A stretch of 36,462 nt of DNA from an uncultured Bacilli bacterium (GTDB taxonomy: Bacteria > Bacillota_I > Bacilli_A > RF39 > UBA660). Shown here piece after piece: positions 13,876-15,702 of this stretch. The notes below the pieces were generated by a model. The model saw only the letters and a list, made by a program, of their open reading frames with translations, made no database searches and had not been told where the DNA came from. The DNA lies in NCBI GenBank assembly GCA_944358235.1, contig CALVQL010000004.1:1-36462 (forward strand), in the 5' to 3' direction. The stretch's first letter is position 1. Every line of letters begins with the position of its first letter. Both the position numbers and the translations under genes were made by a program.

Positions 13876-13907
13876 AAAAAAAGAAATGCTTAATTAGCCA
13901 TTTCTTT
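13876..13907 (-). terminator. Terminator of rpsT
   Basis: On the minus strand AAAGAAATG (13907-13899) pairs with CATTTCTTT (13888-13880), followed by T. The rpsT stop codon lies within the loop. Confidence 0.75.
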
Positions 13908-14156
13908 AACTTTTTTATTTAATCTTGCTTTTTGTCTAGCACAAGTATTCTTTTTTATCAATCCTTTAGAACAAGCTTTATCAATATTTACAATAAATGT
14001 TTTAAGCTCTTTATTAGCTAGCTCAACATCTTTTTCTTTGATCGCTTTTTCACATCTTTTCATTGAATTTTTTACTCTTGCTGTAAAGTCATTATTAGCA
14101 ATAGTTTGAGCTGCATCAGTCTTTACTGATTTCTTAGAACTTGCAATATTAGGCAT
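13890..14156 (-). CDS. rpsT: Ribosomal protein S20
   Basis: 88 aa from ATG 14156, typical S20 length. The longer reading from 14216 is rejected because GGAAGGAG lies just before 14156 and the extra residues cover the promoter. S20 is a primary-binding protein of the 30S subunit, contacting 16S rRNA. The sequence begins MPNIASSKKSVKTDA, has the basic helix TARVKNSMKRCEKAI, and ends in the ACSKGLIKKNTCARQKARLNKKV helix typical of the family. It is a single-gene unit with its own promoter and terminator, opposite to the flanking dacA-nusB block. Confidence 0.96.
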   Translation of the reverse strand: MPNIASSKKSVKTDAAQTIANNDFTARVKNSMKRCEKAIKEKDVELANKELKTFIVNIDKACSKGLIKKNTCARQKARLNKKVKEMAN

Positions 14157-14187
14157 TGTTTTCGCTCCTTCCTTAAATACATATACG

Positions 14188-14216
14188 ATTTTATCAAAAA
14201 AAATGATAAAAATCAA
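14188..14216 (-). promoter_or_regulatory. Promoter of rpsT
   Basis: On the minus strand TTGATT (14216-14211), 17 bases, TGA-TAAAAT (extended -10; -10 at 14193-14188). The AT-rich spacer includes eight T. Confidence 0.6.
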
Positions 14217-14308: not shown

Positions 14309-14335
14309 TTGCCAAAAAGTCATTAATATTATAAT
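14309..14335 (+). promoter_or_regulatory. Promoter of the candidate RNA at 14342
   Basis: TTGCCA (14309-14314), 15 bases, TATAAT (14330-14335). Both hexamers are good; the spacer is two bases short. Predicted start is near 14342. Confidence 0.5.
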
Positions 14336-14341
14336 ATATAA

Positions 14342-14527
14342 GTCCCATAGGGAAGTATTTATTATGGTTTATCAATTGTCGATGTGGATAAAAGTTTTAA
14401 AAATATTTCTTAACTACAATACAAATGATATGTATTCCTTTTTTATCTTTATTTATTTCGCTATCTATGTTTCTACATTGACAATTGGTATAAATAAGAA
14501 AATAGAAGAAACACTTCTATTTTTTTT
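14342..14527 (+). ncRNA. Candidate structured RNA, about 185 nt
   Basis: The 411-base gap between rpsT and dacA holds a unit with promoter, structure and terminator but no convincing gene. A 13-bp stem pairs 14373-14385 with 14475-14487 across 89 bases, with one G.U pair. An outer TATTTAT/ATAAATA helix (14356-14362 with 14490-14496) extends it. An inner hairpin pairs 14418-14423 with 14431-14436. A terminator closes at 14501-14527. Length and the long rod-like fold recall 6S RNA, but I see no decisive sequence signature, so identity is open. A 66-codon ORF (14364-14564) overlaps it but reads through the terminator and has non-native codon use. Confidence 0.45.
14501..14527 (+). terminator. 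Intrinsic terminator ending the candidate RNA
   Basis: AATAGAAG (14501-14508) pairs with CTTCTATT (14514-14521), loop AAACA, then T to 14527. No annotated plus-strand gene lies directly upstream, so it needs a transcript to terminate. Confidence 0.8.
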
Positions 14528-14568
14528 ATATATTACTAATTTGTGCATATATTTTATCAGGTGAGTAT

Positions 14569-15702
14569 ATGAAAAAGATAATTATTTTAATGTTAGCAAT
14601 TTATTGTATTTTTCCTTTAAAAGTATTAGCTTTAGCAGATTCTGCTAAATCAAGCATTTTAATTGAGGCTTCTAGTGGGACGATAATTCACGAAAGCGAA
14701 GCCGATTTAGAACTACCTATGGCCAGTATGACGAAAATGATGACATTACTGATAATAATGGAATATATTGATTCGGGAAAAATTGCTCTTACGGATAATG
14801 TTCCAATAAGTGAAAATGCAGCTTCAATGGGAGGAAGTCAGGTATATCTCGAAGCAAATACTTCGATGAGTCTCGATACTTTATTAAAAGCTGTTTGTAT
14901 TGCCAGTGCCAATGATGCTGCTGTTGCATTAGCAGAATATGTGGCGGGATCTGTCGATAAGTTTGTCGAAATGATGAATGAAAAAGCGAAAAGCTTGGGA
15001 CTTAATCATACTAATTTTGTAAATGTTCATGGTCTGGATGCTGAAAATCACTATTCATCAGCACACGACATGGCTTTTATTGCTAAAGAATTATTAAAAC
15101 ATGAACTGATATTACAGTATTCATCGATTTATGAAGACTATATAAAACATCCTGATGGAACGAATACATGGATCGTAAATACTAATAAGCTAATCAACTA
15201 TTATGAAGGACTTGATGGCCTAAAAACAGGTTATACTATCGATAGTGGTTACTGTATAACGGCAACGGCAAAGCGAAATAATATGCGTCTAATAAGTGTT
15301 GTTATGGGCGAAGAAAATAACAATATTCGTAATCAAGATACGATTGAATTGCTAAATTATGGTTTTGCCAATTATAAGATGGAAACTATTGTCGATCGGG
15401 ATGATGATTTAGGAGTAATTCCAGTTAAATTCGGGAAAAAGGAAAGTGTTAAATTAAAGCTCATCGAAGATGCTGTCGATTTAGTTAACATTGTCGAAGA
15501 AAATAGTTATTCATATGAATTAGTTTATGATGACGTTACTGCGCCAGTCTATGTCGGTGATGTCGTCGGTCAAGTCAATATATATGCTAACGAAGTAAAG
15601 ATTAATAGTTATGATCTTACTGTAAGTGAAAGCGTCGAGAAGGCCAACTTCTTCGATTTATATTTTCGTAATATCAAAAAATTGTTAAAAGGAAGCAACT
15701 AA
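14569..15702 (+). CDS. dacA: D-alanyl-D-alanine carboxypeptidase (S11 family, PBP5-type)
   Basis: 377 aa, typical low-molecular-weight PBP. It trims the terminal D-Ala from peptidoglycan stem peptides outside the membrane. Signal peptide at residues 1-22 (KKIIILMLAIYCIFPLKVLA). Catalytic motifs are S53-M-T-K56 (ASMTKM), SAN (CIASANDAAVAL) and KTG (GLKTGYT). The C-terminal ~110 residues are the strand-rich PBP5 domain (VKLKLIEDA, VYVGDVVGQVNIY), ending in an amphipathic-helix-like FFDLYFRNIKKLLK that would dock on the membrane. ATG 14569 follows CAGGTGAG. The upstream terminator makes its own promoter likely, but none is clear. Confidence 0.94.
   Translation: MKKIIILMLAIYCIFPLKVLALADSAKSSILIEASSGTIIHESEADLELPMASMTKMMTLLIIMEYIDSGKIALTDNVPISENAASMGGSQVYLEANTSMSLDTLLKAVCIASANDAAVALAEYVAGSVDKFVEMMNEKAKSLGLNHTNFVNVHGLDAENHYSSAHDMAFIAKELLKHELILQYSSIYEDYIKHPDGTNTWIVNTNKLINYYEGLDGLKTGYTIDSGYCITATAKRNNMRLISVVMGEENNNIRNQDTIELLNYGFANYKMETIVDRDDDLGVIPVKFGKKESVKLKLIEDAVDLVNIVEENSYSYELVYDDVTAPVYVGDVVGQVNIYANEVKINSYDLTVSESVEKANFFDLYFRNIKKLLKGSN

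What the first reader, a model, noticed from the sequence alone, without database searches (positions are those of the whole stretch)
14309..14527. Promoter-stem-terminator unit before dacA looks like a ~185-nt non-coding RNA
A TTGCCA/TATAAT promoter, a 13-bp long-range stem (14373-14385 with 14475-14487), an extending helix, an inner hairpin and a U-tract terminator lie in a gap with no convincing gene. The terminator has no other transcript to end. Length and rod-like folding fit a 6S-like RNA, though no sequence signature proves it.
Basis: partly seen in the sequence, partly recalled or inferred. Interest (0 to 1): 0.6.

Follow-up and report, generated by a model that had tools for sequence, protein, structure and literature searches.

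The report
Orphan copy of unrecognised bacterial RNA

Summary
The stem, terminator and open gap are real; the promoter is weaker than stated (15-nt spacer). It is not 6S: the genome's 6S candidate lies elsewhere, and the window has no Rfam hit. It is not coding. Homologues in 12 other genomes of two genera of one family form an undescribed structured RNA of roughly 280-420 nt (no Rfam hit). They share an AATTGGTATTTTACA/TATAAT promoter, a 5' hairpin, AAAAGGG repeats (27 seen, 1.5 expected), a long closing stem P1 with compensatory changes, a near-invariant strand TTTCTTAACTACAAAAACAAACCATATAAA, a hairpin and a terminator. In all 12 the RNA follows a viperin-family radical-SAM gene and a LysR regulator; all seven RNA-less congeners lack both. 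TAAC-N5-GTTA operators, absent from control loci, lie upstream of the RNA promoter and at the radical-SAM operon promoter. The window keeps P1 (19/19 pairs, including its own T-A to C-G double change) and the strand, but has lost the enzyme, regulator, operators, repeats and hairpin: a shortened orphan. Best reading: a LysR-co-induced, trans-acting structured RNA of a viperin-like module. Co-regulation is inferred from sequence; what the RNA does is unproven.

The parts
14309..14337 (+). candidate sigma-70 promoter: TTGCCA 14309-14314, TATAAT 14330-14335 (15-nt spacer) or TAATAT 14332-14337 (17-nt spacer)
   Evidence: Sequence; scan gives 9/12 with no excess over shuffles. The relatives' AATTGGTATTTTACA/TATAAT promoter and LysR-type operators are absent here.
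14342..14527 (+). predicted RNA, about 186 nt (transcription start inferred from the promoter)
   Evidence: MFE z -4.07 (folded 14345-14530); covariance model R2 match 14366-14506, 67.3 bits, E 8.8e-9 (R2 contains this sequence). A model built without it (R1) gives 22.7 bits, E 0.019 at 14368-14512.
14370..14388 (+). P1 closing stem, 5' arm (TATCAATTGTCGATGTGGA)
   Evidence: Pairs 19/19 with 14472-14490 in the window; 4 of the 19 pairs show changes on both sides across 13 sequences, two of them only in the window (C-G for U-A at column 15/180; A-U for C-G at column 23/172).
14406..14431 (+). conserved unpaired strand TTTCTTAACTACAATACAAATGATAT
   Evidence: Aligned to the near-invariant TTTCTTAACTACAAAAACAAACCATATAAA of 12 relatives.
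14472..14490 (+). P1 closing stem, 3' arm (TCTACATTGACAATTGGTA)
   Evidence: As for the 5' arm.
14499..14527 (+). terminator-like hairpin AAAATAGAAG-AAACA-CTTCTATTTT plus T-run
   Evidence: Folds in the MFE; a hairpin followed by a T-run found by script in 11 of 12 relatives and visible by eye in the twelfth.
14569..15702 (+). dacA-like D-Ala-D-Ala carboxypeptidase gene (neighbour, not part of the RNA)
   Evidence: ORF 377 aa; close homologues in congeners.
13890..14216 (-). rpsT (30S protein S20) ORF, divergent neighbour and syntenic anchor (TTG start as listed; a later ATG is likelier)
   Evidence: ORF listing; an rpsT homologue lies divergently on the far side of the module in 11 of the 12 module loci.

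Best explanation
The unit is the window's member of an undescribed structured non-coding RNA family. In its complete form the RNA is the third part of a locus [(CYTH) - viperin-family radical-SAM enzyme - LysR regulator] - RNA. Shown here: conserved sequence and covarying structure; fixed synteny; joint presence and absence; matching T-N11-A (TAAC-N5-GTTA) operator-like sites at both promoters. Inferred: the LysR protein binds those sites and co-induces the enzyme operon and the RNA. The RNA, closed by P1 and ended by its own terminator, then acts in trans, its near-invariant unpaired strand and purine AAAAGGG repeats being the binding surfaces for a target RNA or protein, so it works as a co-regulated regulatory or scaffold RNA of the module. 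In this genome the enzyme and LysR genes are gone from the locus (and not found elsewhere in the 86%-complete assembly). The RNA survives as a shortened orphan with a different promoter: P1 and the core strand kept; the hairpin, repeats and operators lost.
For: Homologues. Covariation: 6 pairs with double changes against 1.5 in shuffles; 92% of cells paired against 33-49% with slid partners. Synteny: radical SAM - LysR - RNA in the same order in all 12. Co-occurrence: close radical-SAM match and module LysR in 12/12 full-RNA genomes and 0/7 RNA-less congeners (p 1e-4 ignoring phylogeny). Operators: 21 exact sites in 44.4 kb of module loci, 0 in 92 kb of control loci; 55-56 or 77 bases before the RNA's -35 in 10 of 12, and at the radical-SAM operon promoter in genus g63. 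None near a paralogous LysR. Viperin family: PADLOC pVip E 7e-41, phmmer best hit viperin 5VSL, top 20 Foldseek hits on PDB all viperins, TM 0.7-0.8. The RNA core is far more conserved (a strand of about 30 nt nearly invariant) than the enzyme (37-47% identity to the G006 enzyme across genera).
Against: No transcript data. No target found: the conserved strand has no shared complementary site in the module. Joint presence could partly reflect physical linkage, since one deletion removes all parts. Two of 12 module loci have no exact operator, and exact operon-promoter sites were found only in genus g63. A third genus (G142) has CYTH, a broken radical SAM and LysR but no detectable RNA. The radical SAM scores under NCBI's viperin cut-off (123.9 against 180).
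Confidence: 0.66

Rival explanations
1. The window copy is a decaying relic: the module lost enzyme and LysR, and the RNA is now non-functional even if still transcribed.
For: It has lost the operators, AAAAGGG repeats, 5' hairpin and conserved hairpin; it matches a model built from congeners only weakly (22.7 bits). Its dacA sister G002 has no RNA.
Against: P1 pairs 19/19 including compensatory changes unique to this genome; a promoter-like site and a terminator remain; TTTCTTAACTAC is intact.
Confidence: 0.35
2. Cis-acting leader (riboswitch or attenuator) of the downstream gene: P1 and the terminator would switch dacA/RDD expression.
For: Always on the same strand as the next gene and ended by a terminator just before it; riboswitch-like pattern of conserved core with variable arms.
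Against: The downstream gene changes: dacA in the window and three other g1 genomes, another stretch with its own terminator before dacA in G001 and G003, RDD in g63. No antiterminator pairing conserved between P1 and the terminator is apparent. Co-occurrence follows the upstream genes, not dacA.
Confidence: 0.12
3. 6S RNA.
For: Length and rod-like fold of the window copy only.
Against: 6S match elsewhere in this genome and most relatives; no 6S match here; relatives' RNAs are about 280-420 nt with other conserved blocks.
Confidence: 0.02
4. Small protein gene (66-aa frame 14364-14564).
For: An open frame exists in the window.
Against: No family match; relatives have stops in all frames, 1-2-nt indels inside the most conserved block, and no ORF over 30 aa.
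Confidence: 0.02

Closest known systems
OxyR/OxyS-type arrangement (LysR-type regulator controlling a nearby trans-acting small RNA; from general knowledge)
   Same: RNA gene beside a LysR-type regulator gene, with T-N11-A sites upstream of its promoter and its own terminator.
   Different: Here the RNA follows the regulator on the same strand, is larger and has a near-invariant core and AAAAGGG repeats; no sequence relation tested; targets unknown.
Prokaryotic viperins (pVips)
   Same: The neighbouring enzyme has the viperin fold and the CxxxCxxCF cluster motif.
   Different: Scores under the NCBI viperin cut-off; paired with LysR (and CYTH in genus g1) and with an RNA. Two literature searches found no such pairing.
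6S RNA (RF00013)
   Same: Size and rod-like fold of the shortened window copy.
   Different: A separate 6S match exists in the genome; no model match here; different conserved core.
Structured RNAs of unknown function found by comparative genomics (kind described in e.g. PMC2864571; abstract only seen)
   Same: Conserved core, covarying stem, variable arms, independent terminator.
   Different: Not in Rfam 15; found so far in two genera only and tied to one protein module.

Membership tests
6S RNA (RF00013) | Covariance-model match at the locus | tested here: not met
   No match at gathering or at E up to 10, nor in relatives at E up to 5.
6S RNA (RF00013) | The genome's 6S is this locus and no other | tested here: not met
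   Own-genome match at C31:10699-10871, E 1.1e-7.
6S RNA (RF00013) | Binding of RNA polymerase holoenzyme, pRNA synthesis | not testable with these tools
   Needs biochemistry.
New RNA family proposed here | Covariance-model match (R2; the window is one of its 13 sequences) | tested here: met
   Window 67.3 bits, E 8.8e-9; independent model R1 only 22.7 bits, E 0.019.
New RNA family proposed here | P1 long-range stem with compensatory changes | tested here: met
   Window pairs 19/19; C-G double change at column 15/180.
New RNA family proposed here | Conserved hairpin followed by AATACAC and ATTCTTTG | tested here: not met
   Missing in the window; the AATACAC/TATACAC block is present in all 12 others.
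New RNA family proposed here | Adjacent viperin-like radical SAM and LysR with TAAC-N5-GTTA operators | tested here: not met
   None in the window; genes present in 12/12 full-length members, exact operators in 10/12.
Prokaryotic viperin (neighbour gene in relatives) | Viperin fold and radical-SAM cluster motif | tested here: met
   Foldseek top 20 all viperins, TM 0.7-0.8; CxxxCxxCF invariant.
Prokaryotic viperin (neighbour gene in relatives) | NCBIfam NF038283 score at or above the curated cut-off | tested here: not met
   123.9 against 180 bits.
Prokaryotic viperin (neighbour gene in relatives) | Production of 3'-deoxy-3',4'-didehydro-nucleotides, anti-phage activity | not testable with these tools
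   Needs enzymology and phage assays.
LysR-controlled small RNA (OxyS-like) | LysR-type T-N11-A sites at the RNA promoter | tested here: met
   Exact sites 55-56 or 77 bases before the -35 in 10/12 relatives, none in controls; not in the window.
LysR-controlled small RNA (OxyS-like) | Base-pairing targets in trans | tested here: inconclusive
   No conserved complementary site within the module; whole genomes not scanned.

The most novel reading that the evidence does not exclude
The RNA is a working component of a viperin-family defence module: co-induced with the enzyme by the LysR regulator, it serves as the module's trigger sensor, target-selecting RNA or scaffold. As far as I know that would be the first viperin system with a dedicated non-coding RNA.
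Probability: 0.2. Interest if true: 0.85.

Novelty: new variant of a known kind. Interest (0 to 1): 0.6.

Why it matters
It adds an Rfam-absent structured RNA family with a core more conserved than its protein neighbours, and ties it by synteny, co-occurrence and predicted shared operators to a viperin-family enzyme. If confirmed, bacterial viperin-like modules may be RNA-linked and LysR-induced, which is directly testable. The window also gives a natural experiment: an RNA that outlived its protein partners.

Tried and rejected
6S. Coding frame. Rfam families at relaxed thresholds gave only chance matches. Pattern scan of viral contigs and BLAST of plasmids and phages: nothing. First model R1 across 243 family genomes (strict filters) found only G006 and G073 and missed the window itself, so that negative is weak. 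Wider R2 searches of order and family failed on the server, so the host range beyond two genera is open. L066, a pattern hit, is a chance match in coding DNA. Alternative pairing of the P1 5' arm with the invariant strand (seen in some MFEs) is not kept in the window or in the GATGTAG variants. Complementarity of the invariant strand to the radical-SAM leader: strong in one species (z -5.0), not conserved. AAAAGGG repeats could pair with the 16S anti-SD tail (-7 to -8 kcal/mol, weaker than a true SD; the tail sequence was taken from general knowledge): noted, not pursued. Paralogous LysR loci lack both RNA and operators.

Full report
Observation. The terminator-like hairpin 14499-14523 is followed by T's to 14527. 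The promoter is less good than stated: TTGCCA to TATAAT is 15 nt apart, and such sites are no more common in this region than in shuffles. The inner hairpin is not conserved.

Not 6S. Rfam gives nothing here, while RF00013 matches this genome at C31:10699-10871 (E 1.1e-7, 42.7 bits, just under the cut-off), and most relatives carry a 6S match elsewhere.

Not coding. The 66-aa frame has no family match. Aligned relatives have 1-2-nt indels within the best-conserved block and no ORF above 30 aa.

A conserved RNA. Upstream DNA of dacA in congeners revealed a common element. DNA, pattern and covariance searches found it in 5 further genomes of this genus (g1: G001, G003, G005, G006, G008) and 7 of a second genus of the family (g63). 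Complete members run from an AATTGGTATTTTACA/TATAAT promoter (near-identical in 11 of 12) through a 5' hairpin (ACTTGAA/TTCAAGT), purine linkers with AAAAGGG repeats (27 found, 1.5 expected), stem P1, the strand CCAATAATAATTTCTTAACTACAAAAACAAACCATATAAATTT (its TTTCTTAACTAC and AAACAAACCATATAAA blocks invariant outside the window), a hairpin with AATACAC on its 3' side, and a terminator; approximate lengths are 276-419 nt for the 11 whose terminator the script found. No Rfam hit on any member.

Covariation. On 13 sequences, 6 pairs show changes on both sides (shuffled mean 1.5, 0 of 500 as high), 92% of cells pair, and slid partners give 33-49% (the independent MAFFT alignment gives the same picture). 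P1 has four such pairs: U-A to C-G in G073, U-A to C-G in the window, A-U to U-A in three genomes, and C-G to A-U at the inner end of P1 in the window. The hairpin stem has two. The number of events is small and the sequences are related, so this is good but not overwhelming support.

Neighbourhood. In all 12 full members the order is radical SAM - LysR - RNA, with rpsT divergent on the far side in 11 of 12 (the fetched stretch of G003 does not reach it), and a CYTH gene first in genus g1. The radical SAM is of the viperin family: PADLOC pVip E 7e-41, best PDB sequence match viperin, AlphaFold model (pLDDT 87) with the 20 best Foldseek hits all viperins; it is below NCBI's viperin cut-off. Seven congeners without the RNA (G002, G004, G007, G206, G273, G276, G277) have only distant radical-SAM hits (E 2e-12 or worse, or none) and at best a LysR paralogue of 48% identity or less. 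In g1 the dacA tree puts the losses on at least two lines, with moderate support. Linkage means one deletion can remove all parts, so the count overstates independence.

Shared control. TAAC-N5-GTTA, a LysR-type T-N11-A palindrome, occurs 21 times in 44 kb of module loci and never in 92 kb of control loci (4 against 0.11 expected in one locus). Upstream of the RNA it sits 55-56 or 77 bases before the -35 in 10 of 12 loci. At the radical-SAM operon promoter exact sites are found in genus g63 only, including inside the -35/-10 spacer. The third genus G142 has one just after its LysR gene, where a protein gene, not the RNA, follows. LysR binding itself is inferred.

The window copy. It lacks the enzyme, LysR and operators, the 5' hairpin, the repeats and the conserved hairpin, but keeps P1 (with its own compensatory changes) and TTTCTTAACTAC. 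A model built without it recognises it only weakly (22.7 bits, E 0.019), so its membership rests on the shared block, the P1 sequence and the position. Whether it still works is open: I give 0.35 to a relic.

Mechanism. Most likely the LysR protein co-induces the enzyme operon and the RNA, and the RNA acts in trans through its exposed conserved strand and purine repeats. The regulatory part is inferred from operator placement; the action of the RNA is a hypothesis, and my target tests within the module were negative.

Novelty. No Rfam family, and no paper found joining prokaryotic viperin with LysR or CYTH (only an open-access library was searched). It is a new RNA family in a recognisable kind of arrangement.

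Noticed in passing
L079:3217-13829 (congener G006, contig C2): In congener G006 dacA is split near its SxN motif (SANDVAV) by about 9.4 kb that carries a large serine recombinase (Resolvase, Recombinase, Zn-ribbon domains) and what looks like conjugation-gene remnants; dacA-like matches are also in two pieces near codons 105-130 in G010, G017, G029, G030, G032 and G034, so dacA may be an integration hot spot in this family.
   Followed up: partly
L130, L131, L132 and module loci of genus g1 (e.g. L094, L095): CYTH-domain (cyaB-like) homologues recur beside viperin-like radical SAM genes in several genera of the family, a possible functional pairing.
   Followed up: no
L140:2834-4484 (G142 C6): A third genus has CYTH, a viperin-like radical SAM with an in-frame TAA, and LysR, with an operator and a promoter-like site after LysR but a protein gene where the RNA would be.
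   Followed up: partly
G000:C31:10699-10871: Likely 6S RNA of this genome scores 42.7 bits, just under Rfam's 46.4 cut-off, as do those of several relatives.
   Followed up: no
L076:9818-10918 (G004): In G004 the rpsT-dacA gap holds other sequence (an apparent coding stretch) instead of the module, suggesting that this gap is a variable site.
   Followed up: no
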